64,000 nt of DNA, from contig NZ_AP028461.1 in the NCBI RefSeq assembly GCF_033097365.1, forward strand, positions 5,332,001-5,396,000. Reading direction: 5' to 3'. This document shows positions 17,305-31,801 of the stretch, piece after piece (the first letter of the stretch is position 1; the number at the start of each line of letters is the position of its first letter). The position numbers and the translations under genes are program-made. Source of the stretch: Actinoplanes sichuanensis (GTDB taxonomy: Bacteria; Actinomycetota; Actinomycetes; Mycobacteriales; Micromonosporaceae). The notes under the pieces were generated by a model. It worked only from the letters and a program-made list of their open reading frames with translations, was not told where the DNA came from and did no database searches.

Positions 17305-17637
17305 GCGTCGGGAACCCCTCGGGGCCAACGTACGCACAGTCCGTCACCGTGGCACAGCGGAGCGCCATGCTCGGGTCGACGGAAGGCGATGGCACCGACC
17401 GGCCCGGTCGCGCCTGTCGCTAAGCTCTCCACAGAGCAGGAAGATCCACATTGGAGCCGACTGCTTCCGCGTTCACGACAGGGCAGCTCAGGAGCCTTTC
17501 CCAAGCTGGTGACCGGGAGACCTGCACAACACCGGGATTGGTGGCCAACCCGGCAATCCGGCAGGTACGGTACAGACTTCGTAGTCGGTGATCTTCTTCC
17601 GCTCCGATACGACACGAGGCTGATTGGGGAGCAATCG
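17305..17637 (+). other. 333-base upstream region of the conservon
   Basis: No gene is supported here; open frames lack coding character and a good start. A small hairpin GCTCT-CCAC-AGAGC lies at 17424-17437. Possible -10 hexamers include TAAGCT near 17421 and TACGGT near 17566, but I see no matching -35 sequence. The promoter of the conservon is probably in the last 100 bases, giving a leadered transcript with the GGGGAG site. Confidence 0.4.
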
Positions 17638-18711
17638 ATGCCTGCGGCAGGCCGCTGGACGAACTGGTGGCGCAGGCGGCAGCCCGAACCGGTCGAGCCC
17701 ATCGAGCCCGCCGAGGTGCCGGAGGAGCCGACCCCACCGGAGGATCCGTGGCGGCCGGTCGCCGGCGAGTTCGCCCTCCGGCTACTCACCCTCACCTGGG
17801 AAGCGGTCCACCACATCGGTGAGGCCGAGTTCCGCGAGCAGGACAGCGAGCGTCGCAAGGTCCTGTTCCGCATCGACCACTCGGTCACCCGGGTCCGCCG
17901 CCTCGCCGAGAACCTGCGAGTGCTCACCGGCGAACCGCTCGACGACCCGGACCAGCAGGTCACCTCACTGCAGGACGTCACGCACGCGGCCGGCGCCGCC
18001 GTCGAGAACTACGAGCGGCTGCATTTCGGCCCGATCGCCGACCTCGCGGTCGCCGCGGTCGCCGCCGACGACGTGATCCGCATCCTGACCGAGCTGATCG
18101 ACAACGCCGACCGGTATTCACCGCCGACCGAGCCGGTGACCATCGCCGCACACCTCACCGGCGACGGCGACGTGGTGATCCGGGTCGAGGACAGCGGCAT
18201 CGGCGTCAACCCGGCCCACCTGCCGTGGATCGAACGGCTCCTGGACAGCCCGGACGGTCCGCCCACCGACGAGCTGCGGCCCGCCCACCTCGGCCTGTCG
18301 GTGGCCGGGGTGCTCACCCACCGGCATCGATCGCTGCGCGTACGCCTGGTGCCCCGGCAGCCCCGCGGCACCGTCGCCATGCTGCTGATCGGCGCCGACC
18401 TGCTCTGCGAGACGCCACGGGTGGCCGAGCCGGAGCCTCCGCAACCGGCCGTCGAGGCGGTGCCCGAGCAGCGTCGGCCGATCGCCGGCAACGAGGTGAC
18501 CATGGTGCTGCCGATGCAGAAGCAGGCCATGCCGCGCCGGGTGCCGGCCAGCGTCCGCGGCACCGACCCGCCGCCGCCCCCGGTCACCACCCAGGTACAT
18601 CAGACCACCTGGCACGACGACGCCGCCGACTTCAACGCCGGTGTCGACGCCGCCCGTGCCAAGGTCCCGCACCGCAACGAGCGCCCCCCGAAAGCCGAAG
18701 GACCGCGATGA
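17638..18711 (+). CDS. cvnA: conservon kinase-like ATPase (CvnA type, no membrane sensor)
   Basis: 357 residues. ATG 17638 has GGGGAG upstream. After an acidic Pro-rich linker comes a dimerisation helix with EFREQDSERRKVLFRIDHSVTRVRRLAENLRVL, whose His81 is the likely phospho-acceptor. The HATPase domain follows: N box LTELIDNADRYSPP, G1 VEDSGIGV, G2-like HLGLSVAGVLTHRH. The C-terminal 100 residues are disordered and Pro-rich. Typical CvnA proteins have N-terminal TM helices and a periplasmic sensor; both are absent here, so the signal must be cytoplasmic. First gene of a five-gene operon; its stop overlaps the next start (ATGA). Confidence 0.85.
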   Translation: MPAAGRWTNWWRRRQPEPVEPIEPAEVPEEPTPPEDPWRPVAGEFALRLLTLTWEAVHHIGEAEFREQDSERRKVLFRIDHSVTRVRRLAENLRVLTGEPLDDPDQQVTSLQDVTHAAGAAVENYERLHFGPIADLAVAAVAADDVIRILTELIDNADRYSPPTEPVTIAAHLTGDGDVVIRVEDSGIGVNPAHLPWIERLLDSPDGPPTDELRPAHLGLSVAGVLTHRHRSLRVRLVPRQPRGTVAMLLIGADLLCETPRVAEPEPPQPAVEAVPEQRRPIAGNEVTMVLPMQKQAMPRRVPASVRGTDPPPPPVTTQVHQTTWHDDAADFNAGVDAARAKVPHRNERPPKAEGPR

Positions 18712-19172
18712 ACGACTACCACTCCACCGCCGACGGCGGCCAGCCGGACGTCACCTGGCTGATCGACCAACTCGTCCGCGAGGTTCCGACGATCACCGCG
18801 GTCGTGCTGGTCTCCGCCGACGGGCTGCAACTGGCCTCCTCCGGGCACCTGAGCCGGGAGCACGCGGAGAGCGTCGCCGCGCTGGCCGCCGGGTTCCTCG
18901 GCATCACCGGCCAACTCGGTGGCCTGCTCCAGCTCGGCGCCCCGGAGAACCTGAGCATCCGCTACCCGCACGGCCACCTGGCCTTCCTGCGCATCGACGA
19001 CCCGACGGGCGACTTCGTCGCGGCACTGCTGGTGGCGGCGCAACCCCAGACCCAGATCGGACACCTGGGGTACGCGATGACGACGTTCAGTCAGTCCGTC
19101 GGGCACGCCCTGACGCCGGAGACCCGGCACGCACTGCACCAGAACACGCTGCCCGCACCGGCACGCCGCTAG
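18708..19172 (+). CDS. cvnB: roadblock/LC7 domain protein (CvnB)
   Basis: 154 residues. A single roadblock/LC7 fold: VTWLIDQLVREVPTITAVVLVSADGLQLASSG, then HAESVAALAAGFLGITGQLGG and an amphipathic C-terminus. These MglB-like proteins act on small GTPases; in conservons CvnB sits on a complex with CvnA, C and D at the membrane. The start ATG overlaps the cvnA stop. The ten-base gap to the next gene holds AGGAGG. Confidence 0.9.
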   Translation: MNDYHSTADGGQPDVTWLIDQLVREVPTITAVVLVSADGLQLASSGHLSREHAESVAALAAGFLGITGQLGGLLQLGAPENLSIRYPHGHLAFLRIDDPTGDFVAALLVAAQPQTQIGHLGYAMTTFSQSVGHALTPETRHALHQNTLPAPARR

Positions 19173-19182
19173 GAGGCAGGGC

Positions 19183-19533
19183 ATGGTCCGAAGGCCGGGG
19201 CTGCACTGGAAGGTGCGCCCGTACATGACCGCCCGCGGGCGGACCGGCAGCCGCAGCCCGCTGCTGATCCACACCCTGGTCTCCACCGGCAACCGCTACG
19301 ACCCGGTGCTCGCCGCCAGCCTCGCCCCCACCTCGCGGACCCTCTACGAGCACGCCCGGCGGATGTGCTCGGTGGCCGAGCTGTCGGCGAACTGCGGGCT
19401 ACCCCTCGGCCTGACCCGCCTGCTGATCAGCGACCTGCTCAAGATCGGTCAGCTGGAGGTGCACGACCCCCGCTCCTCACAGGATCTAGCACTACTGGAG
19501 AGACTCCGTGCCGGCCTTGCCCGACTCACCTGA
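19183..19533 (+). CDS. cvnC: DUF742 protein (CvnC)
   Basis: 116 residues. The DUF742 pattern is clear: VRPYMTARGRT, SPLLIHTLVSTG, EHARRMCSVAELSANCGLPLGLTRLLISDLLKIGQLEVH. The second half is a winged-helix-like segment (SVAELSANCGLPLGLTRLLI). The N-terminal part is typical of conservon third genes. Strong AGGAGG before ATG. It overlaps the GTPase gene by 26 bases. Confidence 0.9.
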   Translation: MVRRPGLHWKVRPYMTARGRTGSRSPLLIHTLVSTGNRYDPVLAASLAPTSRTLYEHARRMCSVAELSANCGLPLGLTRLLISDLLKIGQLEVHDPRSSQDLALLERLRAGLARLT

Positions 19534-20119
19534 CGGCGTACGGATGAGCAGCCAGATGACCTCGGCGAAGAACATGACCTCGGCGAAGATCGTCGTAGCG
19601 GGTGGTTTCGGGGTGGGCAAGACCACCGCGGTCGGCGCCATCTCGGAGATCCCGGCGATCCGCACCGAATCCTGGATGACCGCGGCCGCCGCCCAGATCG
19701 ACCGTCTCGATCCGGGCATCGACAAGGTGACCACCACGGTGGCCATGGACTTCGGCCGGGTCACCATCGACGAGACCCTGGTGCTCTACCTGTTCGGTAC
19801 GCCCGGCCAGCCCCGTTTCTGGCCGATGTGGGACGACCTGGTCCGGGGCGCGGTCGGCGCGCTGGTCCTGGTCGACACCAACAACCTGGCCAACTCGTTC
19901 GCCGCCGTCAACTACTTCGAGAACGACGCGGACGTACCGTGGATCGTCTGTGTGAATCTGTTCCATGGAGTTGCCACCCACGAGCTGTCCGAGGTGCGGG
20001 ACGCGCTGGCGCTGCCCGCACACGTGCCGTTGATCGCCGCCGACATCCGTGACGCCCGCAAGGTCGCCCGAGCGTTGCTGGCCGTCGTGGACCACGCGGC
20101 GAAACAGGCCATCGGATAG
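19508..20119 (+). CDS. cvnD: conservon small GTPase (CvnD) with degenerate G4 motif
   Basis: 203 residues, MglA/Ras-like. G1 GGFGVGKTT is intact, and G3 region LYLFGTPGQPRFWPMWDD is typical. The G4 motif that reads guanine (N-K-x-D, or N-x-F-D in conservon GTPases) is here VCVNLFHG: Asn150 is kept but the Asp position is His153. Guanine specificity may therefore be weak. GTG 19508 has GGAGAG upstream and lies inside the end of cvnC; an ATG at 19544 is possible. In conservons this protein cycles between GTP and GDP under control of CvnB. Confidence 0.85.
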   Translation: MPALPDSPDGVRMSSQMTSAKNMTSAKIVVAGGFGVGKTTAVGAISEIPAIRTESWMTAAAAQIDRLDPGIDKVTTTVAMDFGRVTIDETLVLYLFGTPGQPRFWPMWDDLVRGAVGALVLVDTNNLANSFAAVNYFENDADVPWIVCVNLFHGVATHELSEVRDALALPAHVPLIAADIRDARKVARALLAVVDHAAKQAIG

Positions 20120-20149
20120 ACGGAAGAGCTCAACAGGAGGCGGATTAAT

Positions 20150-21394
20150 TTGCGCAACATTCTCATCGTGGGGGCCGGCCAGGCCGGTCTCCAGCTCGCC
20201 CTGAGCCTGCGGGCCGAGGGCTACGAGGTCACCCTGATGTCGGCGCGCACCCCCGACGAGATCCGCACCGGCTGGGTCATGTCGACCCAGGCGATGTTCG
20301 ACATGGCGTTGGAGACCGAGCGGGCGTACGGCCTGAACCACTGGGAGGACGAGACCCCGCCGATCCACGGCCTGCGGCCCACCCTCGCCGCCCCGCCCGG
20401 TCAACTCGCCCTGGAGATCATCGCGCCGCTGGACAAGCCGGCCAAGTCGACCGACCAGCGGATCAAGATGGCCCGCTGGCTGGAGGACGCCCAGGAGCGC
20501 GGCGTCGACGTCATCTACAACGCGGTCACCACCCAGGACCTGGACGCGATCACCCAGCTGGGCCGCTACGACCTGACGATCGTGGCGGCCGGCAAGGGCG
20601 ATCTGGTGGCGATGTTCGACCGGGACCCGAACCGGTCGCCGTACACCGAACCGCAGCGGGGCCTGGCCGTGGCCTACGTGCACGGCCTCGAACCGGACCC
20701 GAAGTGGCCGGTGCCGCACGTCGGCTTCCACGCCATCCCCGGCATGGGTGAGCTGTTCGTCATCCCCGGCCTGACGCACACCGGTCCCTGCGACATCCTG
20801 TTCTGGGAGGCCGTACCCGGTGGTCCGCTGGACCGCTGGGCCGGGCACACCGGCCGGATGGTGCCCGAGCAGCACCTCGAACTCACCCTCGGCCTGATCC
20901 GCGAATACCTGCCGTGGGTGGCCGAGCGGGCCGGCAACGTACAGCTCACCGACGCCAAGGGCACCCTGCACGGCCGGTACACGCCGACCGTCCGCCGGCC
21001 GGTCGCGCACCTGCCGGGCGGAGGTAAGGTGCTCGGCCTGGCCGACGTGGTGATCGCCAACGACCCGATCACCGGCCAGGGCAGCAACACCGCGGCCAAG
21101 GCTGCCGACCACTACCTGAAGGCGATCCTGGCCCGCGGCGACCAGCCGTTCGACGAGCAGTGGATGACCGACACGTTCGAGGGCTTCTGGACCGCGCACG
21201 GCCAGGCGGTCACCGGCTGGACCAACGCCATGCTGCAGCCGCTCCCGCCGCACGTGCAGCAGCTGCTCGGCGCGGCCTCGCAGAACGAGCGGATCGCCCG
21301 CCGCTTCGCCGCGGGCTTCGTCGACCCCAACGATTTCCTCAACTGGTTCGTCGACCCGGAGAAGGCCACCGCCTATCTGGCCGAGGTGAGCTGA
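20150..21394 (+). CDS. FAD-dependent monooxygenase, styrene monooxygenase (StyA)-like
   Basis: 414 residues, the StyA length. N-terminal Rossmann motif ILIVGAGQAGLQLALSL, then YDLTIVAAGKGDLV and the second FAD site ANDPITGQGSNTAAKAADHY. These are the features of group E two-component flavin monooxygenases (styrene or indole epoxidation), which need a separate FADH2-supplying reductase; none is adjacent. The start is TTG with AGGAGG nine bases upstream. It lies 30 bases after cvnD on the same strand and is probably the last gene of the conservon operon, making it the likely enzymatic output. A strong terminator follows. Confidence 0.85.
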   Translation: MRNILIVGAGQAGLQLALSLRAEGYEVTLMSARTPDEIRTGWVMSTQAMFDMALETERAYGLNHWEDETPPIHGLRPTLAAPPGQLALEIIAPLDKPAKSTDQRIKMARWLEDAQERGVDVIYNAVTTQDLDAITQLGRYDLTIVAAGKGDLVAMFDRDPNRSPYTEPQRGLAVAYVHGLEPDPKWPVPHVGFHAIPGMGELFVIPGLTHTGPCDILFWEAVPGGPLDRWAGHTGRMVPEQHLELTLGLIREYLPWVAERAGNVQLTDAKGTLHGRYTPTVRRPVAHLPGGGKVLGLADVVIANDPITGQGSNTAAKAADHYLKAILARGDQPFDEQWMTDTFEGFWTAHGQAVTGWTNAMLQPLPPHVQQLLGAASQNERIARRFAAGFVDPNDFLNWFVDPEKATAYLAEVS

Positions 21395-21410
21395 GCGGTA
21401 CGCCGTAGCC

Positions 21411-21438
21411 GGAGGCACACCCAGGGCGGTGTGCCTCC
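21411..21438. terminator. bidirectional intrinsic-type hairpin
   Basis: GGAGGCACACC and GGTGTGCCTCC form a perfect 11-base stem with a 6-base loop (CAGGGC). It lies 16 bases after the monooxygenase stop and 7 bases after the stop of the convergent GTPase gene, so it can serve both. There is no clear T-tract, as is common in actinomycetes. Confidence 0.75.
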
Positions 21439-21445
21439 CCCAGGA

Positions 21446-23020
21446 CTACCCGTGCCGGAGCGCCTCGCCCTCGGCCACCGCCGCCTGCAACTGCTCGACC
21501 AGCAGGCGCAGGCCGGCGTCCAGGTCGACCTGGTCGCCGGTCTCCGCGACGATCTCGTCCCGCACCTCGTCGACGTACGGCTGCCAGGTCTCCAGGGCCC
21601 GTCGGGTGAACTCGGCCGCGACCTTCTCCCGCTGCTCGGCGGCCGCCCGGTCCTGGTTCGCCCGCGCACGATCGGCCAGCCGTCCGCCGACCGCGTCGGT
21701 CAGGTAGACGGCCAGTGGCAGGAACGCCTCCGCCGTGCCGAGATGCCGCCCCCAGCCCTCCGCGGCCTTCACGATCCGGGTCTTCCGGCCCGAGGCCGAC
21801 CCGGCCGCCTCGCTCGCCACCTTCAACGCGCCGAGCAGCATGGTGCCGACCTTCTCGACATGTTCCGCGGCACCGCCGCCGGTCCGGTCCGGGCCCGGAG
21901 CCTCACCGGACTCCAGTGCCGTGACCAGCGACGCGAAGTCGGTCCACGACGGCCGAGCGCGCTCCCGTTCCCGGGTCTTGCGGATCGACTGCCGCAGCCG
22001 TTCCAGACGTACCTGATGCCGGGTGAACCACTCGTCGAGGCTGTGCTGGATCTCGCCTTGCGGGTCGCCCGCGCCCGGCTCCCCGGCCCGCCGCAGCACC
22101 TCGTCGACCAGACCGTCGAGCCCGGCCCGGGCGGCCTGATCGAGGGTGTCGAGCTCCTTCTCCCACCCGTCGCGACGGGCGACACCGTGGGCCGCCTCCC
22201 CGGCCCGCGCCGTGTAGTCGGTCAGCTGACTGCGCAGCTCGGTGACGGTCTCATCGAGGATCGCGGTCCAGTACCGCTGCCCGGCCGCGGCCCGCCGGGC
22301 CGGCGACGGAGTCACCGATTCCAGGGCGTCGGCCAGGCCGCCCATGCCGTCCCAGGCGCGGAAGGCATCCCAGGTCTCCGGGCCGAGATCGGTGTCCGGC
22401 CCGGCCGTCTGGAACGGATCCTGGGAGACGACGAACACCGGCACCCCGTCGTCCAGGCCGAAAAGCTCGCGCAGCTCACGCACCTTGCGGTCGCTCAGTT
22501 CCCGGTACTGGTCGGGGTCGTACTCCGGGTCCACACCGGCCTCGTCGAATCGGGAGATGACGAACCACATCGTCCCGGTCGGCCAGCCCTGGGTGAACAG
22601 ACTCTGCAGGACGTCCCGTTCGGCGGTCACCAACTGCGGCGTGAGCACCGCGATACCGACGTCGGTGAGTCCGACCGCGGCCATCGCCCGGCGCGAGTTG
22701 TTCTGTGCACGGATGTCGGACCCGCCGACCACGAACCCGGGCGTGTCCCGGACGACACACCCACCGATCTCGACGTCGTTGACCGCGAACGTCTCGTGAC
22801 GTGCGCTGATCGTGAGCCAGTCGGGAACGTCACCGCCGGTGTCGACGAGCAGACGGCGCAGCAGGGAGCTCTTACCCGTGTCGTAGGAACCGAACAGCGT
22901 CACCACCGGCCGGTCCAGCGCCGTGAAGGCGTCCCATTCGTCGGCGTGCTCCCCGGCCGGCGATCCGCCCGGCAGCCGCGAAAGCCAGTCCCGCACTGCG
23001 CCGATGTCGACCACTGTCAC
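21446..23020 (-). CDS. dynamin-like GTPase, single domain
   Basis: 524 residues. GTPase domain in the first 230 residues: P-loop LFGSYDTGKSSLLRR, switch region, G3 RDTPGFVVGG and G4 ISRFDEAG. The C-terminal 290 residues are helical with heptad-like stretches (DWFTRHQVRLERLRQSIRKT region) and a weak hydrophobic stretch near AFLPLAVYLTDAVGG. This is the layout of bacterial dynamin-like proteins, which remodel membranes. It follows a tandem dynamin gene with a 4-base overlap (ATGA), so the two products are made together and may form a hetero-oligomer, as known for bacterial DynA/DynB pairs. Confidence 0.8.
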   Translation of the reverse strand: MTVVDIGAVRDWLSRLPGGSPAGEHADEWDAFTALDRPVVTLFGSYDTGKSSLLRRLLVDTGGDVPDWLTISARHETFAVNDVEIGGCVVRDTPGFVVGGSDIRAQNNSRRAMAAVGLTDVGIAVLTPQLVTAERDVLQSLFTQGWPTGTMWFVISRFDEAGVDPEYDPDQYRELSDRKVRELRELFGLDDGVPVFVVSQDPFQTAGPDTDLGPETWDAFRAWDGMGGLADALESVTPSPARRAAAGQRYWTAILDETVTELRSQLTDYTARAGEAAHGVARRDGWEKELDTLDQAARAGLDGLVDEVLRRAGEPGAGDPQGEIQHSLDEWFTRHQVRLERLRQSIRKTRERERARPSWTDFASLVTALESGEAPGPDRTGGGAAEHVEKVGTMLLGALKVASEAAGSASGRKTRIVKAAEGWGRHLGTAEAFLPLAVYLTDAVGGRLADRARANQDRAAAEQREKVAAEFTRRALETWQPYVDEVRDEIVAETGDQVDLDAGLRLLVEQLQAAVAEGEALRHG

Positions 23021-26000
23021 TCGTTCCCCTCTGCTGTGCCGATCTTCTCGGCGGCCACGATCAGGGCCTCGGTCACCTCGGCCCGGGTCTGTGCCGCCGC
23101 CATCCGTGCCGTGATCGACGAGGCGAGGGCCGACTGCTCGTCGCGCAGTTCCCTGATCGCCGCGGCCCGCTGGTCGAGCTCACCGACCGGGCCGTCGCCC
23201 TGCTCGCCGTGCAGGATCCGGTCGACCAGGCCGGCCGCGAATTCGTCGATGGCCTGGAGCGCCGATTCCTGCTGCCGTTTGTGGTCACCGGCCTTGCGGT
23301 GGTCGCTGACCATCGACGCGGCGTCGACGACGGCGGCGACAGCGCCGAGGAAGGCGGCGCCACGAGCCACGTTGCCGGCGCCCTTCACCGCGCCCCACGG
23401 CTTGAAGTTGTGGCCGATGAACTTGCCGATCGCGTAGACCGCGTCCCGGCTCGCCAGGGCGGTCGCCACCGTCGCCGCCGCTCCCGCCACCGTGCCGGTG
23501 CCCTCGGCGACGGTCTCCTGCCAGGTCAGGCCGTGCGCCTCGAACTCGGCCGCGAACTCGGGCGTCACCGAGAACGCGGCGGCCCGCATCTCCCGGCCGA
23601 TCGCCGCGATGTGGTCGTTCTGCCACTGGTCCAGTTTCTGCGACGCGACGGCCAGATACCGTTCCAGGTCGGCGGCGACCGCCGGTGCCTTCCACCAGGA
23701 GTCGACCAGCTCGGCCAGCTTCGCGGCGTCCTTCCGATCGAGTTCGGCGACCGTGGATCTGGCCGCCGCGGCGTGCCGTTCCACCATCCGACGGGCGTCC
23801 TCGCGCAACGAGTCCCCGAGGAACTCGGCGTCACTCACCGCCGCCCGGAGGGTGGTGATCAGCGATTCCACCCGGGCGAGGTCCCGCGTGCCGTCGGCCT
23901 CGACCCGGCGGAGGGTCTGCCGATGCCGTTCCAGGCCGGTGACCGCGGCGTCGAACGCCGCCGACGACGACGCCGCGGACAGCTGCTCGTCGGACAGGTC
24001 CGCCAGCACGCCGGTCACCGCGGCCACGCCGTCCCACAGCCGGTTCTCGTCGAAGTCGGCGGGCGCCACCGTCGTGTCGCCGCTCACCAGGCCGAACGGA
24101 TCACCGGACAGGCAGTGCACCTGCTCGGCCGCGACCTCCACGGAACGGGTGGCGAAGGCGGCCCGCAACTCCGCGCGCTTGTGGTCCTGCGCGTTCAGGA
24201 ACTGCTCGGGCGCGGCCATCGGATCCACACCCAGCTCGTCGCACCGGTTGACGAGGAACACCAGCCGCGCGCCCTTGGCCGCGGCCAACTGCTCCAGCAG
24301 CGCGGTGTCGCCGACGAACAGGTTGATGTGGACGACGACGAAGACCAGGGCGGCCTCGACGACCGCTGCCATGGCGGCGTCATCGTGGCCGTCCTGTCCG
24401 CTCTGCAGGCCCGGAGTGTCCACCAGGTCGACCCGGCCCAGCGGATATCGGCGTGCGACGGCGGTCGCGGGCGACGCCCGGATGTCGAAGGCCGCGTCCG
24501 GCGTCCGGCCGCCGTCCACCACAAGCCGCCGGATCAGCGAGGACTTGCCCGAGTTGTAGTCGCCGAGCACCGCCAGCGCCGGTCGCGCCCCGTCGACCCG
24601 CCAGAACGTCCGGACGATGTCGAACAGAGCCGGGTCGTGCCGGGCCGCCTCCTCCAGTTCGTCCCGCCACGCGTGCAGGCCGATCGTCGACGATGGGTTC
24701 CAGGCCGCGGTCAGGGCCTGGGTCAGCCGCAGCTCGTCCTGCTCCCGGCGACGCGAAAACACCTCGTGGACGGCCGGGTCGATCCGTGCCGGACGATGGT
24801 CGGCGGCCGACCCGAGCCAGTCCTCGCCCAGCAGGATCCGGGTCACCTCGGCCGGCGACTCCCCCATCCGGCGTAACGCCCGCCGCAGGACGCCGGTCAC
24901 CGCGGGGGCCGGCTGGATCGACTCGGAGTAGGCCCGCATGTCGGCGATCAACCGGACGATCCGGTCGCGAGCGGTACGAAGCTCGACCGCGGCGCGCAGC
25001 GACTCGCCGACAGCCGGCGCCACCAGTGTCCACGCGTCGGTCCGGCTGTCCCGGACGAGCGTGTCCTCGTAGTCGGCGAACGTCTGCTCGACCGCGCGAT
25101 GGCAGTCCGCGATGGCGTCGGCCTTCGCCTTCCGGGCCCGCTCGGCCGCCTCCTGGCTCATCTTCTTGCCGAAGTACTGCTGCACCTGGGTGGCGATCCC
25201 GATGCCCGCGGCGACCGCGCCGAGCACCCAACCGGCCGGGTTCCAGATCAGGGCGGCCGCGACGGTGCCCACGCCCAGGGCGATGCCGGTGCCCCGGACG
25301 ACCTCACCGGTGACACCGCCGCCCTCGTCGCCGAGGATCTTCGCGGCGTGCGACACGGCCGGGCCGCTCTGATCGGCGGTGCGGTCCACCGCGATCTCCA
25401 GCTCACGCCGTAGGAACTCCCGGCGCCCCGACCAGACGGCCGCCACCGCGGCGGAGATGGCGTCCTGATCGAAGACCGCCTCGGTGAACGTCGCCTCGTC
25501 GATCGCCTTCTGCTCGTCGAACGCCGTCCGGATCAGGTCGTCGGCCCGGGCCTTCGCCTCCCGGCGGCAGCCCGCCAGATGTGAGGCGGCGAGGTGCCGG
25601 ACGAACCGGTCCAGTGCCCCGCCGGCCGGTGACGTATAGGGCACCCCCCGCGCCCGTTCGGCCTGCTCGAGAAGGTCCGCGCCGAGAGGATCCGCGCCGG
25701 ACAGCCACGCGGCGCGTTCGGTGTCCTCCGGGTAACCGACCAGGTCGAACAGCGACTCGACGTCCTTCTCGAGCGTCTCCGCCTCCCGGTCGAGCTGTGC
25801 GGCGAGCGCTTCGAGTTCACCGATCCCCCGGCCGCACCGGGATCGCAGGTCCTCACGCAGCGCGGCCAGTCGCAGGTCGGCGCTGCCCTCGGCGATCGAC
25901 GTGACGATGAGGCGTTCCAGCGTCGCGAAGTTCGACCACCGCTCGAGATAGTCCGTACCGAACTCCTCGCGCTGCCGGTGGAACGCCTTCTGCAGCGTGT

Positions 26001-26754
26001 CGGGTCCGTGGAAGGGGGTGGTGGCCCGCGCGAACAGCGCCCGCTGACTGTGGATCGCGACGACCGGGATGTCCGGCAACCCGATCTGGGCGAGCTGGGT
26101 ACGGATGTTGTCGGCGTGCTGGCGTACCGCCTCGGACGGGTTACGCCGCTGGGCCTCGGGGACGATCGCCGGGTGCCGCCACCGCGCGTTGCGGACGTTG
26201 AGCACGGCCACCGCCGGTTTGCCGTGGTCCCGGATCCAGGCGGCGATCTTCGTGAACTCCATCTCCTGCTGGGCCTGGTTGTCGAAACACAGCAGCACGA
26301 TGTCGGCGATCTCGACCGCCCGGCGGGCCTCGGCCTCCAGCGAATCGCGGCTCCGGGTCCGGCCCCAGCCGTTGATCCCCGGTGTGTCGAACAGCCGGCA
26401 GTCGCGCCACTCGATCGGCTGCACCTCGGTGGTCCAGTCGCTGACGCCGGGCGAGACGTACTCGCCGTCGAGTCGGCCGAACACCGACAGCAGCGTGCTC
26501 TTGCCGACGCCGGTACGCCCGAAGAACGCGATGTTGAACGATCCGAGCGACTCGCGTTCCCGGTCGAGGTGCCGGCGCAGGTCGTCCGGGAACCAGCGGA
26601 GGAAGCCGTCCAGCCGGGCGACCGGGCTGGGCGAGTCCGGTCCGAAGGCGGCGGCCAGCTCGTCGGTGACGGCGTCCAGACGGGTCAGTTCCGCGTGCCC
26701 CTGCTCGACGGCCGATCGAACGGCCTCCTCGAGCGACACCTCTTCGGTGCTCAA
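23017..26754 (-). CDS. tandem dynamin-like protein with two GTPase domains
   Basis: About 1245 residues. GTPase 1 lies near residues 65-260: FFGRTGVGKSTLLSV, FDTPGINGWG. A helical region with a hydrophobic hairpin follows (ALGVGTVAAALIWNPAGWVL), a likely membrane paddle. GTPase 2 starts near residue 730: VLGDYNSGKSSLIRR, VDTPGLQSG, LVNRCDELG. A second helical part with hydrophobic segment GAAFLGAVAAVVDAASM follows. The internal duplication resembles Bacillus DynA (two fused dynamins). Start: the frame is open to an ATG at 26886, but the first 44 residues look non-coding and the ATG lacks a ribosome site; TTG 26754 has GAGGAG 11 bases upstream and is preferred. Membrane fusion or repair, septation or phage resistance are the known roles of relatives. 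Confidence 0.78.
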   Translation of the reverse strand: MSTEEVSLEEAVRSAVEQGHAELTRLDAVTDELAAAFGPDSPSPVARLDGFLRWFPDDLRRHLDRERESLGSFNIAFFGRTGVGKSTLLSVFGRLDGEYVSPGVSDWTTEVQPIEWRDCRLFDTPGINGWGRTRSRDSLEAEARRAVEIADIVLLCFDNQAQQEMEFTKIAAWIRDHGKPAVAVLNVRNARWRHPAIVPEAQRRNPSEAVRQHADNIRTQLAQIGLPDIPVVAIHSQRALFARATTPFHGPDTLQKAFHRQREEFGTDYLERWSNFATLERLIVTSIAEGSADLRLAALREDLRSRCGRGIGELEALAAQLDREAETLEKDVESLFDLVGYPEDTERAAWLSGADPLGADLLEQAERARGVPYTSPAGGALDRFVRHLAASHLAGCRREAKARADDLIRTAFDEQKAIDEATFTEAVFDQDAISAAVAAVWSGRREFLRRELEIAVDRTADQSGPAVSHAAKILGDEGGGVTGEVVRGTGIALGVGTVAAALIWNPAGWVLGAVAAGIGIATQVQQYFGKKMSQEAAERARKAKADAIADCHRAVEQTFADYEDTLVRDSRTDAWTLVAPAVGESLRAAVELRTARDRIVRLIADMRAYSESIQPAPAVTGVLRRALRRMGESPAEVTRILLGEDWLGSAADHRPARIDPAVHEVFSRRREQDELRLTQALTAAWNPSSTIGLHAWRDELEEAARHDPALFDIVRTFWRVDGARPALAVLGDYNSGKSSLIRRLVVDGGRTPDAAFDIRASPATAVARRYPLGRVDLVDTPGLQSGQDGHDDAAMAAVVEAALVFVVVHINLFVGDTALLEQLAAAKGARLVFLVNRCDELGVDPMAAPEQFLNAQDHKRAELRAAFATRSVEVAAEQVHCLSGDPFGLVSGDTTVAPADFDENRLWDGVAAVTGVLADLSDEQLSAASSSAAFDAAVTGLERHRQTLRRVEADGTRDLARVESLITTLRAAVSDAEFLGDSLREDARRMVERHAAAARSTVAELDRKDAAKLAELVDSWWKAPAVAADLERYLAVASQKLDQWQNDHIAAIGREMRAAAFSVTPEFAAEFEAHGLTWQETVAEGTGTVAGAAATVATALASRDAVYAIGKFIGHNFKPWGAVKGAGNVARGAAFLGAVAAVVDAASMVSDHRKAGDHKRQQESALQAIDEFAAGLVDRILHGEQGDGPVGELDQRAAAIRELRDEQSALASSITARMAAAQTRAEVTEALIVAAEKIGTAEGNE

Positions 26755-26901
26755 CGTGTGTCCCGCTCCTCGCCACCCATGATGATCTTGGATCATGCTG
26801 CCGCGCCGAACCGCGCCTGACCATCCCCCTGAACTGTCGGACGATTCGACCGGATGCCGGATGCCGAACGACCCCGAATCGGTCATGCCGGAAGACTACG
26901 A

Positions 26902-26919
26902 GTACGACTCAAGTCGTAC
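26902..26919. promoter_or_regulatory. perfect 8+8 palindrome between dynamin operon and ABC transporter
   Basis: GTACGACT-CA-AGTCGTAC is a perfect inverted repeat with a 2-base centre. It lies 148 bases upstream of the proposed dynamin start and 60 bases upstream of the ABC transporter start, so it may control either or both divergent units. The cognate regulator is not encoded next to it; TetR or PadR types bind sites of this shape. Confidence 0.7.
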
Positions 26920-26965
26920 GCCCGGGTTCAATCTCGGGGTGGACGCCGTCGATCCGTCGCCTGCC

Positions 26966-26971
26966 TAGCGT
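26966..26971 (+). promoter_or_regulatory. -10 element of a leaderless promoter (ABC ATPase)
   Basis: TAGCGT (TANNNT) ends 7 bases before GTG 26979. No ribosome binding site is present. Confidence 0.55.
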
Positions 26972-26978
26972 CGTTGAC

Positions 26979-27662
26979 GTGTCTACCCAACCCCTACTCG
27001 CCGCCGACGACGTCACCAAGTCGTTCGGCGCCACCCAGGCCCTGACCGGCGCGTCGTTGCAGGTCTTCCCCGGTGAGGTGCTCGCACTGACTGGACCGTC
27101 CGGGTCCGGCAAGTCGACCCTGCTGCACTGCCTGTCCGGGATTCTGCGACCGGACGGCGGCCGGATCGGCTACGACGGCCGCGATCTGGGCGCGCTCGGT
27201 GACCGGGAACGCAGCGCGCTGCGCCGGAACGCGTTCGGTTTCGTGTTCCAGTTCGGACAGCTGGTTCCCGAGCTGACCTGTCTGGAGAACGTCGCGTTGC
27301 CGCTGCGGCTGTCCGGTGTCCGCCGCCGGCGGGCCGAGCAGTCGGCGGGTGAGCTGCTGGCCCGGCTCCAGGTCTCCGACGTGGCGGGCAAACGGCCCGG
27401 TCAGGCGTCGGGCGGGCAGGCGCAGCGGGTCGCGGTGGCCCGTGCCCTGATCACCACCCCTCGGGTGATCTTCGCCGACGAGCCGACCGGCGCACTCGAC
27501 TCCCGCAACGGCGAGCAGGTGATCCGGCTGCTGGTGGCGGCGGCGAAGGAACGTGGCAGCGCGGTCGTGCTGGTCACCCACGAGGACCGGATCGCCGCGT
27601 GCGCCGACCGGGTGGTCGTGTTCCACGACGGCGCGAACCTCGACGCGGCGGTCACCCGATGA
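26979..27662 (+). CDS. ABC transporter ATP-binding protein (MacB/LolD type)
   Basis: 227 residues. Walker A LTGPSGSGKSTLLHCLSG, Q-loop FVFQFGQLVPELT, signature ASGGQAQRVAVARAL, Walker B VIFADEPTGALDS and H-loop VLVTHEDRIA are all intact. The short length and the LVPELT / EPTGALDS segments are those of ATPases that pair with FtsX-like permeases. The stop overlaps the permease start (ATGA). Likely exports peptides, antimicrobial compounds or lipid-linked material; the two-component genes downstream suggest induction by an envelope signal. Confidence 0.93.
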   Translation: MSTQPLLAADDVTKSFGATQALTGASLQVFPGEVLALTGPSGSGKSTLLHCLSGILRPDGGRIGYDGRDLGALGDRERSALRRNAFGFVFQFGQLVPELTCLENVALPLRLSGVRRRRAEQSAGELLARLQVSDVAGKRPGQASGGQAQRVAVARALITTPRVIFADEPTGALDSRNGEQVIRLLVAAAKERGSAVVLVTHEDRIAACADRVVVFHDGANLDAAVTR

Positions 27663-29920
27663 CCGCGCTGCTGCTGGGCGTACGGCTGAGCGTCGCGGGC
27701 GGACGGTCCGGGTGGCTGCGGCTGGCGCTGATCGCCGCCGGGGTCGGGCTCGGCGTGGGGATGCTGCTGGTGCTGGCCGCCACACCGACCGCGGTCGCGG
27801 CCCGCGAGGAACGACGCGACGACCGCGCCTCGGGCGCCGCCGCCGAGTCGGCCGGGCCCGCAACGCTGCTGGTCCTGGCGGTGGAGAGCCGGTTCCGGGA
27901 GGAGGCCGTCCGCGGGCGGATCCTGCGGCCCGACGGTGACCGGCCACCGGTTCCGCCGGGACTGGACCGGGTTCCGGCGGCCGGTGAGATGTTCGTGTCC
28001 CCGGCGCTGGCCGGCCTGATCGCCGGACCGGGCGGTGACGTGCTGGCCGGACGCTGGTCGGCACGGGTGGCCGGAACGATCGCTCCGGAGGGTCTGTCCG
28101 GGCCGGACGAGATGTGGTTCTACGCCGGTTCCGACACGCTGACCAGCGACGACGGCGCCGAGCGGATCAGCTCGTTCGGAGCCGACCGGACACCGACGAC
28201 GGACGGCACGATCGTGGTGCTCGCGATCATCGGTGCGGCGATCATGCTGATGCCGGTGCTGGCGTTCGTCACGACCGCGGTGCGGTTCGGCAGCGAGAGC
28301 CGGGAACGGCAGCTCGCCGCGATCCGGCTGGTCGGCGCGGACGGCCGGATGACCAGGCTGATCGCGGCCGGGGACACCCTGATCGGCGCGGTCCTGGGGC
28401 TCGCCGTCGGCGGTGCGGTCTTCCTCGGGCTGCGCAACGTGGTCGGGTCGTTGTTGCCGGCCGACTTCAGCCCGTACCCCTCGGATCTCCGCCCGGTTCC
28501 GGTCTTTGTCGTTCTGATCCTGCTGGTCGTGCCGGCCGGCGCCGTGCTGGTGACGCTGACCGCGCTGCGCCGGGTGGTGATCGAGCCGCTCGGCGTGGTC
28601 CGGCAGAGCGTGCCGCGCCGACGACGGCTGTGGTGGCGGCTGGTTCCGCCGGCGGCCGGGCTGGCGCTGCTGTATCCACTGGCCGGCGGCCTGCCCGCGG
28701 AGATCGGCGACGGCACCCGCGGGCAGCTCGCGGCCGGGGCGATCCTGCTGCTGACCGGGGTCGTGGTGCTGCTGCCGTGGCTCGTGCAGGCACTGGTCCG
28801 GCGGCTCGGCGGCGGTGGCGTGGCCTGGCAGTTGGGCGTGCGGCGGCTGCAACTCGACAGCGACACCGCGATCCGGTCGGTCTCCGGGATCGCGGTGTCG
28901 GTCGCCGGTGTCATCGCCGTTCAGGGCCTGCTCGGTGCCTCGATCGCGGCGACCGGCGGGGCACAGGCGCCGGCCGAACGGTTCCAGGCGGTCGCCTACA
29001 CGAACGGCGCCGACGGCACCGGATGGCAGGCGGCCCTGACGGGCACGCCGGGGGTCGCGGAGGTGCGATTGTCCGGCTACGGCTCTCTCCGGACCGGTGC
29101 CGAAGAACAAACCGGGGCGACGGTACGGGTGGGCGACTGCGAAGTTCTGCGGCAGTACGCCCCGCTGCCCTCGTGTACCGACGGTGACAGCTTCTCGGCT
29201 GTGATGCCGGGCTGGGACAAGACTGTCGAAGAGCCGGGCTCCTCGTTCTACGGCGCCGACGAGAACACGCCACTCTCCTCATGGACCGTGCCGGACGGGG
29301 TACCCGAGGTCACGCTCTATCCGAGTGAGGCCGGGCCGGCCGACTACCTGGCCACCCCGGGCGCCCTGAAGATCCGCCCCGACCTGTCCGGCCTGATCAC
29401 CGACGGTCATCTGGTGCGGCTGGATCCGGCCGCCCCGGACGCCATCGAGCAGGTCCGCAACACCATGACCAGGCTCGCCCCGGCCGCTCCCCTGCAACTG
29501 TTCGACGACCAGCGGATCGGCAACCAGTTCGCCGGAGCCCGCCAGGTGGCCCAGGCCTGCGCCGTACTGCTGCTGCTCTTCATCGGCGCCAGCATGCTCG
29601 TGAACGTGACCGAACAGCTGCGGGAACGGCGCCGGCTGCTGGCGGTGCTGGCCGCGTTCGGCACCAGACGACGGACCCTGTCGGCGTCGGTGCTCTACCA
29701 GGTCGCCATTCCCGCGTCGGCCGGGCTGCTCCTGGCGGTGCTGGTCGGCGGCACCCTGTCGGCGGTGCTACTGGCCGCCACCCGGGCGCCGGTCACCGTC
29801 GACTGGTCGGCGATCGGCCTGGTCACCGCCACGGTCGCGGGGATGATCCTGGCGGTCACCGCGGCCGGTCTGCCGCTGCTGTTCCGGCTGCTTCAGGTCC
29901 ACGAGCTGCGCAGTGAGTGA
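27659..29920 (+). CDS. ABC transporter permease, FtsX-like, two core modules
   Basis: 753 residues. One TM helix near the N-terminus (LALIAAGVGLGVGMLLVLAA) is followed by an extracellular domain of about 150 residues. A first FtsX-type TM block then appears (IVVLAIIGAAIMLMPVLAFV), with the FtsX-like cytoplasmic loop ESRERQLAAIRLVGADGR. A second half has its own TM, extracellular region (with Cys residues in CEVLRQYAPLPSC) and last FtsX block (ACAVLLLLFIGASMLV, RERRRLLAVLAAFGTRRRTL). The start is ATG 27659 within the ATPase stop. Partner of the ATPase at 26979. Confidence 0.88.
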   Translation: MTALLLGVRLSVAGGRSGWLRLALIAAGVGLGVGMLLVLAATPTAVAAREERRDDRASGAAAESAGPATLLVLAVESRFREEAVRGRILRPDGDRPPVPPGLDRVPAAGEMFVSPALAGLIAGPGGDVLAGRWSARVAGTIAPEGLSGPDEMWFYAGSDTLTSDDGAERISSFGADRTPTTDGTIVVLAIIGAAIMLMPVLAFVTTAVRFGSESRERQLAAIRLVGADGRMTRLIAAGDTLIGAVLGLAVGGAVFLGLRNVVGSLLPADFSPYPSDLRPVPVFVVLILLVVPAGAVLVTLTALRRVVIEPLGVVRQSVPRRRRLWWRLVPPAAGLALLYPLAGGLPAEIGDGTRGQLAAGAILLLTGVVVLLPWLVQALVRRLGGGGVAWQLGVRRLQLDSDTAIRSVSGIAVSVAGVIAVQGLLGASIAATGGAQAPAERFQAVAYTNGADGTGWQAALTGTPGVAEVRLSGYGSLRTGAEEQTGATVRVGDCEVLRQYAPLPSCTDGDSFSAVMPGWDKTVEEPGSSFYGADENTPLSSWTVPDGVPEVTLYPSEAGPADYLATPGALKIRPDLSGLITDGHLVRLDPAAPDAIEQVRNTMTRLAPAAPLQLFDDQRIGNQFAGARQVAQACAVLLLLFIGASMLVNVTEQLRERRRLLAVLAAFGTRRRTLSASVLYQVAIPASAGLLLAVLVGGTLSAVLLAATRAPVTVDWSAIGLVTATVAGMILAVTAAGLPLLFRLLQVHELRSE

Positions 29921-29926
29921 ATCTCC

Positions 29927-29932
29927 TAGGCT
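29927..29932 (+). promoter_or_regulatory. -10 element of a leaderless promoter (sensor kinase)
   Basis: TAGGCT (TANNNT) ends 7 bases before ATG 29940, in the 19-base gap after the permease gene. The two-component genes can therefore be transcribed apart from the transporter. Confidence 0.55.
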
Positions 29933-29939
29933 GGGCGGC

Positions 29940-31124
29940 ATGCCGGTCCGTCTGCGTCTCTCACCGGCCGATCTGCTGGTCTCGGTCTTCGTGGTCGTCC
30001 TGGCGACCTGGTGGTGGCACCAGTTCCGGGCCGGTGGGCTGGCGTTCGGCCTGCTCGCCGGGACGGTGCTGCTGTGGCGCCGCCACCACCCGCTCGCGGT
30101 GCTGGCCGGTGTGTCGGCGCTGACCGTCGCGACGGCGACGGTCGAGGTCAACGACTCCCAGCTGCACGAGGGGATGCTGCTGATCACGCTGGCTCTCGCG
30201 ATGTGGGCGGCCATCGTGCACGAGCCGACCCTGCGGCGTGCGGTGGCCGGTGGAGTGGCCGCTTCGCTGGTCGCCGCGCTGGTGCTGCCGCTGAACCAGA
30301 CCGCCTCCGGGCTGCACGCGGTGACCCTGCTGGACATCGCCGACGGTTTCGGGGTGGTGGTCGGCTACGGGGGCGTGGTCTGGGCGGCCGGGCTCAGCGT
30401 GCGCTACCTCAGCCAGTTGCGGGCCAACGCGGTCGAGCGACGGCTCAGCGCCGAACGCGAACGGCGGGACAACGCGCGGATCGCGGTCGCCGAGGAACGG
30501 GCCCGGATCGCCCGGGAACTGCACGACATCGTCGCCCACTCACTGTCGGTGATCGTCCTGCAGGCCAACGGGGCGGCGTACGCGTTCGACCACGATCAGC
30601 AGCGGGTGCGTGAGGCGTTACGGACCATCGGGGCCACCGGGGCCGACGCCCTGGACGAGATCCGTCAGCTCGTCGAGATGCTCCGCAGCGACGGGGGCGC
30701 GGCGTCCGACCGTACCCCCGCCGCTCTCGATCAGGTCGAAGCCGTCGTTCAGCGGGCCCGCGACGCGGGCCTGTCGGTGACCCTGGCGGTGCACGGCACG
30801 CCGCCCGACGTGCCCGGCGGTGTGGCGCTCGCGGTGTGCCGGATCGTGCAGGAGTCGCTGACGAACACGCGGAAACACGCCGGCCGGGACTCGGCCGCCA
30901 CGGTGACCGTCGACTACCGCCCCGGCCGCATCGACATCGAGGTCACCGACAGGTCGGTGGGCGCCTCACCGGCGCCCCCGGCCCGCGGTGGGCACGGGCT
31001 GGTCGGGATGCGGGAGCGGGTCGCCCTCTACGGCGGGACGTTCGAGGCCGGGCCGCTGCCGGACGGCGGCTGGCGGGTCCACGCCGGGCTGCCGCTCTCC
31101 GGTGTGCGAGCGGTGTCCGCATGA
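29940..31124 (+). CDS. NarL-type sensor histidine kinase
   Basis: 394 residues. Four to six TM helices in the first 150 residues (LLVSVFVVVLATWWW, LLITLALAMWAAIV, VVVGYGGVVWAAGL) and no large sensor domain. HisKA_3 helix with RARIARELHDIVAHSLSVIV (His195), then an HATPase with CRIVQESLTNTRKHA and the G box GGHGLVGMRERVALYGG. This small intramembrane-sensing type often guards a neighbouring ABC exporter, here the genes immediately upstream. Its stop overlaps the regulator start (ATGA). Confidence 0.92.
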   Translation: MPVRLRLSPADLLVSVFVVVLATWWWHQFRAGGLAFGLLAGTVLLWRRHHPLAVLAGVSALTVATATVEVNDSQLHEGMLLITLALAMWAAIVHEPTLRRAVAGGVAASLVAALVLPLNQTASGLHAVTLLDIADGFGVVVGYGGVVWAAGLSVRYLSQLRANAVERRLSAERERRDNARIAVAEERARIARELHDIVAHSLSVIVLQANGAAYAFDHDQQRVREALRTIGATGADALDEIRQLVEMLRSDGGAASDRTPAALDQVEAVVQRARDAGLSVTLAVHGTPPDVPGGVALAVCRIVQESLTNTRKHAGRDSAATVTVDYRPGRIDIEVTDRSVGASPAPPARGGHGLVGMRERVALYGGTFEAGPLPDGGWRVHAGLPLSGVRAVSA

Positions 31125-31783
31125 TCCGGGTCGTGCTCGTCGACGACCAGCACCTGGTGCGGGCCGGATTCCGGATGGTCCTCGACTATCAGGACGACAT
31201 GGCCGTCGTCGGTGAGGCCGGGGACGGCGCCGAGGCGTTGCGCCTGCTCCGGGACACCCCCGCCGACGTCGTGGTGATGGACCTGCGGATGCCGGTGATG
31301 GACGGGGTGACCGCGACCAGGCGCATCTGCGCCGCCGGGCCGCTGCCCCGGGTGCTGGTGCTGACCACGTTCGACACCGACGAGGAGGCGTTCGCCGCGC
31401 TGCAGGCCGGGGCGAGCGGCTTCCTGCTCAAGAGTGTGCCACCGGACGACCTGCTCAAGGCGATCCGGGTGGTGGCCGGTGGGGAGGCCGTGGTGGCACC
31501 CCGGGTGACCCGGCGGCTGCTGGACCGGTTCGCCGGCCGCTTCACCGCCGACGAGCAGGCCGCCTCCGGCCCGCACGGCCTCACCGACCGGGAGCACGAG
31601 GTGCTGCTGCTGGTCGCGCAGGGCCTGTCGAACCTGGAGATCAGCGGTCGGCTCCAGGTCGCCGAGGCCACCGTGAAGACCCACATCGGCCGGATCCTCA
31701 ACAAGCTCGGCCTCCGCGACCGGGTCCAGGCGGTGGTCTTCGCCTACGAGTCGGGTCTGGTCCGGCCCGGCAACCCGTCCTGA
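31121..31783 (+). CDS. NarL/LuxR-type response regulator
   Basis: 220 residues. Receiver domain: VVLVDDQHLVRAGF, phospho-acceptor Asp54 in VVMDLRMPVMDG, Thr in VLTTFDTDEE and Lys in GFLLKSVPPDDL. C-terminal LuxR HTH: LTDREHEVLLLVAQGLSNLEIS and VKTHIGRILNKLGLRDRVQAV. Partner of the kinase at 29940; likely targets are the ABC exporter genes 26979-29920 and itself. Confidence 0.94.
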   Translation: MIRVVLVDDQHLVRAGFRMVLDYQDDMAVVGEAGDGAEALRLLRDTPADVVVMDLRMPVMDGVTATRRICAAGPLPRVLVLTTFDTDEEAFAALQAGASGFLLKSVPPDDLLKAIRVVAGGEAVVAPRVTRRLLDRFAGRFTADEQAASGPHGLTDREHEVLLLVAQGLSNLEISGRLQVAEATVKTHIGRILNKLGLRDRVQAVVFAYESGLVRPGNPS

Positions 31784-31795
31784 CCGACGCGGATC

Positions 31796-31801
31796 TAGGG
31801 T
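31796..31801 (+). promoter_or_regulatory. -10 element of a leaderless promoter (VOC protein)
   Basis: TAGGGT (TANNNT) ends 6 bases before ATG 31808, and no ribosome site is seen. Confidence 0.5.

What the first reader, a model, noticed from the sequence alone, without database searches (positions are those of the whole stretch)
21446..26754. Operon with three dynamin-like GTPase domains
Seen: a 1245-residue protein with two GTPase modules (GRTGVGKST and GDYNSGKSS P-loops) overlaps by ATGA a 524-residue single-GTPase protein. Known: tandem dynamins such as Bacillus DynA protect membranes, and Streptomyces dynamin pairs act in septation. A fused double dynamin plus a separate single one in one operon, behind its own palindrome, is not a layout I know to be described in detail and could be membrane repair, phage defence or a septation device.
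Basis: partly seen in the sequence, partly recalled or inferred. Interest (0 to 1): 0.7.

Follow-up and report, generated by a model that had tools for sequence, protein, structure and literature searches.

The report
Three-GTPase dynamin system for phage defence
Two neighbouring bacterial genes encode three dynamin-like GTPases that travel together between distant bacteria, often beside known antiviral genes, so they are probably a three-part version of a known membrane-acting defence system against phages.

Summary
On the minus strand, a 1245-residue protein with two GTPase modules overlaps or abuts a 524-residue protein with one. PADLOC models identify them: residues 6-616 are LeoBC (E 4.6e-161), residues 721-1228 are LeoA (E 8.8e-82 for the whole protein), and the second gene is another LeoA (E 6.3e-104). 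The pair is a relative of the Leo/'dynamins'/Eleos anti-phage family. The layout is conserved: fused LeoBC-LeoA with a second LeoA directly downstream was found at 56 distinct loci, plus a Nostoc plasmid and a viral contig. Two-gene relatives on Klebsiella, Pseudanabaena and Rhodovastum plasmids are unfused with no third GTPase listed beside them. The third GTPase (A2) forms its own clade and lacks the FxxWxA tip motif (0 of 56 loci), which the fused LeoA half keeps at 45 of 56. Carriage is patchy (12 of 150 family genomes). Neighbours are rarely shared, and BREX/Pgl genes lie nearby at 9 of 54 loci. In this window the flanks are ordinary, and the strongest palindrome belongs to the neighbouring transporter operon. 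Best reading: a three-GTPase Leo/Eleos variant acting at the membrane in phage defence. Anti-phage activity is inferred, not shown.

The parts
23017..26754 (-). ORF1: LeoBC-LeoA fusion, two dynamin-like modules, 1245 aa
   Evidence: Translation; PADLOC LeoBC and LeoA; structure model medab58429732
24907..26739 (-). LeoBC module of ORF1 (residues 6-616)
   Evidence: PADLOC PDLC03841, E 4.6e-161 in the whole protein, E 3.9e-152 for the half alone
26494..26520 (-). LeoBC-module P-loop GRTGVGKST (residues 79-87)
26188..26199 (-). LeoBC-module G4 site NVRN (residues 186-189); Asn where NKxD has Asp
   Evidence: Both Asn invariant in the 60 aligned rows; tally
25159..25383 (-). LeoBC-module predicted membrane paddle (residues 458-532), NPxGW motif, hydrophobic, low model confidence
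   Evidence: pLDDT under 50; hydropathy and motif
23071..24594 (-). A1: LeoA module of ORF1 (residues 721-1228)
   Evidence: PADLOC PDLC03839; 4aur LeoA by profile, E 2e-22
24535..24564 (-). A1 P-loop GDYNSGKSSL (residues 731-740)
23296..23568 (-). A1 predicted paddle (residues 1063-1153) with FKPWGAVK motif shared with LeoA of two-gene systems
21446..23020 (-). ORF2 = A2: third dynamin-like GTPase, LeoA-like, without the tip motif
22862..22891 (-). A2 P-loop GSYDTGKSSL (residues 44-53)
23017..23020 (-). GTGA stop/start overlap, if ORF2 starts at 23020
   Evidence: at 57 of 57 loci the A2 match begins -10 to +68 bases from the fusion stop
26782..26796 (.). ATGATCTTGGATCAT palindrome upstream of ORF1; not conserved, role unknown
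26902..26919 (.). GTACGACTCAAGTCGTAC palindrome; goes with the divergent ABC-transporter/two-component operon, not with the dynamin pair

Best explanation
This is a three-GTPase variant of the Leo ('dynamins'/Eleos) defence family. Shown by sequence: ORF1 is LeoBC joined to a LeoA (A1), and ORF2 is a second, diverged LeoA (A2) directly downstream that goes with ORF1 at every locus where both could be read intact. Inferred function: membrane-acting anti-phage defence. Inferred mechanism: the fused BC-A1 protein, with two predicted paddles, is the membrane-binding core, so that the two partners of a dynamin pair are always 1:1. A2, which lacks the tip motif, is a more soluble GTPase partner that pairs across G domains with BC-A1 and links or switches its oligomers. 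When phage infection disturbs the membrane, the complex assembles on it and seals or stiffens it, or stalls lysis, as DynA does. Identity is about 0.9 likely, defence about 0.7, and the division of labour between fusion and A2 about 0.35.
For: Identity: PADLOC; 4aur LeoA full-length profile match to A1; Foldseek. Unit: fusion plus A2 on the same strand at 57 of 66 loci tested (56 distinct after removing L047, apparently the same contig as L062): 13 of 13 strong family-sample loci, 0 of 3 weaker hits (L059-L061), and 44 of 50 genome-contig loci. The other six of those 50 are contig-cut (L100, L101, L108), broken (L106) or LeoBC pieces alone (L107, L109). Co-inheritance: G-domain distances of BC, A1 and A2 at 56 loci correlate, r 0.90-0.94, 0 of 2000 permutations each. 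Defence: 12 of 150 family genomes, 13 loci above 280 bits; 2 of 396 phylum genomes at E 1e-30, one the window's own and the other a contig-edge fragment; largest shared neighbour cluster 4 among 197 neighbours of 54 loci; BREX/Pgl genes at 9 of 54 loci against 0 of 11 control stretches and BrxC in 6 of 296 phylum genomes; brxHI directly upstream on the same strand in L065 and L105. DynA precedent: PMC8844932 abstract.
Against: No activity was tested, and none is shown for any member of this fused clade in what I read. The window itself is not in a defence island: neighbours are a styrene-monooxygenase-like protein, an ABC/FtsX transporter and a histidine kinase, and A. xinjiangensis L068 keeps the same context. 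No strong defence gene was seen near 39 of 54 loci, with partial scanning (60 sampled of 381 listed neighbours plus 8 chosen ones against PADLOC; 10 tblastn queries on all 54). Co-inheritance can reflect joint vertical descent. ETEC LeoABC, the studied member of the wider family, was linked to vesicle release (PMC4159319 passages). A2 had no convincing match among solved structures by sequence; its link to dynamins rests on PADLOC, A1-A2 homology over about 350 residues and Foldseek. The motif that sets A1 apart is missing at 11 of 56 loci and in the Nostoc fusion, and A2 tip regions are not always less hydrophobic.
Confidence: 0.7

Rival explanations
1. Membrane maintenance or vesicle release: the module repairs or remodels the membrane against antibiotics or envelope stress, or drives vesicle export, and protection from phage is at most a by-product.
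For: ETEC leoA and leoB knock-outs roughly halve vesicle release (PMC4159319 passages). DynA also acts in membrane surveillance against antibiotics (PMC8844932 abstract). In this window the neighbours are a transporter and a sensor kinase, not defence genes.
Against: Patchy carriage, few shared neighbours and repeated placement beside BREX, CBASS, Druantia-like and candidate defence genes fit defence better than housekeeping.
Confidence: 0.2
2. Septation or sporulation device like the Streptomyces DynA/DynB pair.
For: Actinomycete host; paired dynamins act in Streptomyces septation (recalled).
Against: No strong match in 138 of 150 family genomes or 394 of 396 phylum genomes, but present in Pseudomonas and Novosphingobium and on a Nostoc plasmid, which do not sporulate as actinomycetes do. 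The genome has other Dynamin_N pairs at 3.21 and 3.42 Mb that could do that job.
Confidence: 0.04
3. Ordinary two-gene Leo/Eleos system: A2 is simply 'the' LeoA, and the A1 half is a decayed or redundant copy of no special role.
For: PADLOC scores A2 (347.1 bits) above the A1 half (194.5 bits) against its LeoA model. Existing tools would call the pair as two genes.
Against: A1 keeps its G1 and G3 residues and the Arg and Asp of G4 invariant in the 60 aligned rows, the tip motif of the three two-gene LeoA at 45 of 56 loci against 0 of 56 for A2, and the full-length 4aur match, so A1, not A2, looks like the canonical LeoA. All three modules evolve together.
Confidence: 0.12

Closest known systems
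LeoABC of ETEC and PADLOC 'dynamins' LeoBC/LeoA (also called Eleos)
   Same: Same two families by PADLOC models; A1 matches the solved LeoA over its full length; LeoBC lies upstream of LeoA as in the two-gene pairs.
   Different: Here LeoBC and LeoA are one polypeptide and a third GTPase gene follows. Klebsiella (698+569 aa), Pseudanabaena (842+580 aa) and Rhodovastum (754+567 aa) pairs are unfused, with no third GTPase listed beside them (that gene table is incomplete).
Bacillus subtilis DynA (tandem dynamin, anti-phage by delaying lysis)
   Same: Two dynamin modules fused in one protein; a bacterial dynamin with shown phage protection (PMC8844932 abstract).
   Different: The NCBIfam DynA model scores 9.5 bits against a cut-off of 1600; DynA has no separate third GTPase (recalled).
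Campylobacter jejuni Cj-DLP1/DLP2 pair
   Same: Paired dynamins; one partner (DLP2) couples two membrane-binding DLP1 (PMC6104087 passages); the complex is among the top Foldseek matches.
   Different: Two unfused proteins, two GTPases; 10-12% identity in the structural alignments.
Mycobacterial IniA
   Same: Bacterial dynamin fold; third in both Foldseek lists.
   Different: Single-GTPase protein (recalled); not among the PDB sequence matches.

Membership tests
Leo/'dynamins'/Eleos defence family | LeoBC protein | tested here: met
   PDLC03841, E 4.6e-161, residues 6-616
Leo/'dynamins'/Eleos defence family | LeoA protein encoded next to LeoBC | tested here: met
   PDLC03839 matches A1 (194.5 bits alone) and A2 (347.1 bits)
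Leo/'dynamins'/Eleos defence family | Two separate genes, two GTPases (layout of the three two-gene relatives seen here) | tested here: not met
   Fusion plus third GTPase; hence a variant. Whether the experimentally validated Eleos has the two-gene or this layout could not be checked
Leo/'dynamins'/Eleos defence family | Protection from phage | not testable with these tools
   Needs an experiment; genetic linkage only
Dynamin superfamily | GTPase motifs G1-G4 in each module | tested here: met
   G1 and G3 residues invariant in all three modules; A1 G4 NRxDE and A2 G4 SRFDE; LeoBC G4 is N-x-x-N without Asp, a departure
Dynamin superfamily | Dynamin fold: GTPase plus long helical stalk and tip | tested here: met
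   Models with GTPase, long helices and low-confidence tip; best Foldseek matches 4aur, BDLP, IniA, with Cj-DLP close behind. Whole-chain TM-scores are low (0.1-0.4), and the top rows for A2 are generic GTPases
Dynamin superfamily | Membrane-binding tip | tested here: inconclusive
   Hydrophobic windows above 1.6 in 51 of 60 (BC), 30 of 60 (A1), 11 of 40 (A2) rows; binding not testable
Bacillus DynA family | NCBIfam DynA equivalog cut-off (1600 bits) | tested here: not met
   9.5 bits
Streptomyces DynA/DynB septation pair | Conserved across sporulating actinomycetes | tested here: not met
   12 of 150 family and 2 of 396 phylum genomes, the window's own among both

The most novel reading that the evidence does not exclude
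A dedicated three-GTPase dynamin machine, not a pair: a covalent LeoBC-LeoA core whose first G domain lacks the guanine-specifying Asp (N-x-x-N in all 60 aligned rows), plus a separate third GTPase without the tip motif that acts as its obligate switch or linker. It would be an ancient heterotrimeric dynamin, spread across Actinobacteria, Proteobacteria and Cyanobacteria as a mobile antiviral module.
Probability: 0.35. Interest if true: 0.68.

Novelty: new variant of a known kind. Interest (0 to 1): 0.5.

Why it matters
Bacterial dynamins are thought to work as heterotypic pairs, and how the partners share the work is unsettled (PMC4159319 and PMC6104087, passages). A conserved form with a fixed 1:1 fusion and a third GTPase gives a natural system in which each G domain can be switched off separately. 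It also suggests that two-gene 'Eleos' calls in actinomycetes may hide a three-GTPase architecture: the Rhodococcus loci read here (L069, L074, L103) all have it.

Tried and rejected
Plain GTPases unrelated to dynamins (the finding's own refutation): rejected, although PF00350 does not report P0002 at E up to 1 and PDB sequence searches of A2 found nothing convincing (the hits to cytochrome P450 cover about 65 residues and look like chance).

Free-standing LeoBC in this clade: searched with the N-terminal half (21 hits, all compared with P0001). Most are truncated, frameshift-like or distant. Two (P0228, 702 aa; P0230, 756 aa) end in the linker between LeoBC and A1 with an unrelated tail, so a free LeoBC or a frameshift cannot be told apart there. 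Only 7998 candidates were scored.

Empty insertion site: not found. The left flank (17544 to 21387-21394) and the right flank (26978-27018, or later, to about 31770) occur as blocks in other Actinoplanes stretches (6 and 5 of the 11 fetched), never together, so the dynamin unit is bounded to about 21395-26978.

Overlap count: 44 of 57 loci were scored '4-base overlap', but that test passes for any TGA stop preceded by A, G or T, so it says little about coupling; I use the distances instead.

First G-domain tree: two A1 rows (L054, L057) were wrongly taken from A2; rebuilt, where BC (100/99), A2 (100/98) and A1 (94/79) are single groups and A1+A2 join at 100/99. Only three two-gene LeoA rows were in it, so the timing of the A1-A2 duplication relative to them is weakly tested.

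Phage records: no match. Two-gene relatives in plasmids are few (7 and 6 records). First gene-calling missed A2 in L049, L052 and L053; it is there.

Papers: the original Eleos/'dynamins' validation (Millman and others 2022) was not found in the held library; what I say of it is recalled. If that tested system already has this fused layout, the variant is the known form.
Full report
What is there. The operon is on the minus strand. ORF1 (23017-26754) encodes 1245 aa and ORF2 (21446-23020) 524 aa; they overlap by GTGA if ORF2 starts at 23020, while the database copy of ORF2 is 522 aa (P0107). The window lies in a 12.1-Mb single-contig genome. A genome of the same genus in the family sample has a contig of the length given for Actinoplanes missouriensis (8773466), and the closest operon relative with a species name is from A. 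xinjiangensis (L068), syntenic over 16322-31812 at 84%, so the host is most likely an Actinoplanes.

Identity. Pfam sees GTPase and dynamin domains in ORF1, including DLP_helical over residues 1088-1146, and only a sub-threshold GTPase match in ORF2. NCBIfam gives weak LeoA/HP0731 (53.8 bits, cut-off 325) and DynA (9.5, cut-off 1600) scores. PADLOC is decisive: LeoBC over residues 6-616 of ORF1 (E 4.6e-161), LeoA over 721-1228 (E 8.8e-82 for the whole protein), LeoA over 26-517 of ORF2 (E 6.3e-104). Scored alone, the halves give LeoBC 506.5, A1-LeoA 194.5 and A2-LeoA 347.1 bits. A profile of 60 ORF1 rows finds solved ETEC LeoA (4aur) at E 2e-22 across the whole A1 half; the ORF2 profile finds nothing convincing.

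Structure. AlphaFold2 models of ORF2 (pLDDT 78.0, pTM 0.71) and ORF1 residues 31-1230 (pLDDT 79.0, pTM 0.64) show three GTPase domains, each with long helices and a low-confidence tip region. Foldseek ranks 4aur LeoA, BDLP and IniA first, second and third for both, with Cj-DLP close behind. Whole-chain TM-scores are low (0.1-0.4), as may be expected of hinged proteins, so the helical parts are supported mainly by order and topology.

A conserved unit. In 150 genomes of the family, the window's own included, 13 loci in 12 genomes score above 280 bits for LeoBC, all with open frames of 1217-1440 aa; the next score is 173 bits. All 13 have the LeoBC-LeoA fusion and A2 directly downstream on the same strand. 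In genome contigs 50 loci were found and 44 have the same layout; the six others are cut by contig ends (L100, L101, L108), broken (L106) or LeoBC pieces alone (L107, L109). A Nostoc plasmid (1314+619 aa) and an IMG/VR contig (L162) have it too. Hosts include Actinoplanes, Micromonospora, Dactylosporangium, Planotetraspora, Kitasatospora, Rhodococcus, Gordonia, Williamsia, Mycolicibacterium, Tsukamurella, Cellulomonas, Pseudomonas and Novosphingobium. At all 57 loci with both genes the A2 match begins between 10 bases before and 68 bases after the fusion's stop.

How it differs from the two-gene form. Plasmid pairs from Klebsiella (698+569 aa), Pseudanabaena (842+580) and Rhodovastum (754+567) are unfused and have no third GTPase listed beside them. 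Their LeoA carry the tip motif FKAWEAV, FAPWGAV or FKPWGAT; the A1 half carries a motif of this kind at 45 of 56 loci and A2 at 0 of 56. The 11 exceptions among the A1 halves are the more distant loci L050-L058, L086 and L110, and the Nostoc fusion lacks it too. In the corrected G-domain tree (63 rows) BC with the two-gene LeoBC (100/99), A1 (94/79) and A2 (100/98) are each one group, and A1+A2 join at 100/99. A1 and A2 profiles align over A1 columns 20-366 and A2 columns 33-351 only, i.e. GTPase and first helices (hhalign E 6.2e-43). So A1 looks like the canonical LeoA joined to its partner, and A2 like a duplicate that diverged in the tip half. This polarity is inference.

Active sites. G1 and G3 residues are invariant in all three modules. 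G4 is NRxDE in A1 and SRFDE in A2. In the LeoBC module both Asn of N-x-x-N are invariant in the 60 aligned rows, with no Asp. From general knowledge of GTPases (recalled) that Asp selects guanine, so the BC domain may bind nucleotide weakly or with altered preference, which would fit a partner role in a heterotypic dimer. Untested.

Why defence. Carriage is patchy: 12 of 150 family genomes and 2 of 396 phylum genomes at E 1e-30, one of them the window's own and the other a contig-edge fragment that my own LeoBC profile scores at only 68 bits. Among 197 inner neighbours of 54 loci the largest shared cluster has 4 members. In a random sample of 30 inner and 30 outer neighbours, 3 and 5 matched PADLOC models above 200 bits (PglZ, BrxHI, HEC-05; PglZ, CBASS cyclase, BrxD, DruE, BrxC); weaker matches (PDC-M26A, PD-T4-6 kinases, mad genes, a type IIG enzyme at 110.8 bits and others) were not counted there, and no genome-wide random sample was scanned for comparison. 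BREX/Pgl genes were found at 9 of 54 loci (L065, L076, L078, L079, L082, L084, L096, L105 by tblastn; L075 by PglW), and any strong defence gene (tblastn over 100 bits or a PADLOC match) at 15 of 54: those nine plus L051, L069, L080, L088, L091 and L094. L051, L075 and L094 come from neighbours chosen by hand because they recur or are large. The tblastn queries came from the loci themselves, so this is a count within the set, not an independent test. Controls: 0 of 11 other Actinoplanes stretches (216 kb) and BrxC in 6 of 296 phylum genomes. L078/L082 and L075/L076/L096 share neighbours, so these are fewer than nine independent events. In L065 and L105 the first matched residue of the fusion lies about 56 and 112 bases after brxHI, on the same strand.

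The window's own surroundings are ordinary: a styrene-monooxygenase-like gene on one side and an ABC/FtsX transporter with a histidine kinase on the other. Both flanks occur as separate blocks elsewhere in Actinoplanes. The strong palindrome at 26902 stays with the transporter block in 3 of 5 stretches without the dynamin genes.

What is known. Michie and others (PMC4159319, passages) describe LeoA, B and C of ETEC as dynamins, LeoB+LeoC forming one split dynamin, and suggest heterodimers. DynA delays lysis after infection (PMC8844932, abstract and outline). Eleos is 'extremely enriched' in Rhodococcus (PMC10482375, passages). Cj-DLP2 couples two Cj-DLP1 (PMC6104087, passages). PMC11811056, PMC12757443, PMC13335696, PMC12629846, PMC10999152 and PMC12915292 were read as passages only. 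None of the passages describes a LeoBC-LeoA fusion with a third GTPase, and the searches showed none in this open-access library; most listed papers were seen as titles and abstract starts only, and subscription papers are mostly not covered.

Verdict. A real, conserved, new variant of a known defence family. That it is a Leo/Eleos relative is well supported; that it acts against phages is likely; how the three GTPases share the work is a hypothesis.

Noticed in passing
G000:C1:3212980-3215081 and 3417012-3420037 (L001-L004): The genome holds two further adjacent pairs of Dynamin_N proteins (open frames of 628+543 and 838+493 aa), perhaps housekeeping bacterial dynamin pairs.
   Followed up: no
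window 26902-26919: Perfect palindrome GTACGACTCAAGTCGTAC upstream of an ABC-transporter/histidine-kinase operon, kept in L157-L159 with at most one mismatch: a likely operator of that operon.
   Followed up: partly
L065 (Actinoplanes xinjiangensis), L105 (Gordonia polyisoprenivorans): The dynamin pair follows brxHI on the same strand at the end of a BREX/Pgl cluster, as if part of that operon. A. xinjiangensis carries two copies of the pair (L065, L068).
   Followed up: partly
L112 (Nostoc sp. UHCC 0926 plasmid pn6): A 35.9-kb plasmid typed as mobilizable carries the fused-plus-single layout next to a protelomerase-family gene although the record is circular.
   Followed up: no
P0245 (Prescottella equi, 408 aa): The protein joins the start of ORF1 (about 112 aa) to an end resembling the end of A2, as if most of the operon had been deleted in frame (the A2-like end was judged by eye).
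   Followed up: no
window 17544-21394 and 26978-31772: Operon-sized blocks with sharp edges recur in different contexts in other Actinoplanes, so this part of the chromosome looks like a mosaic.
   Followed up: partly
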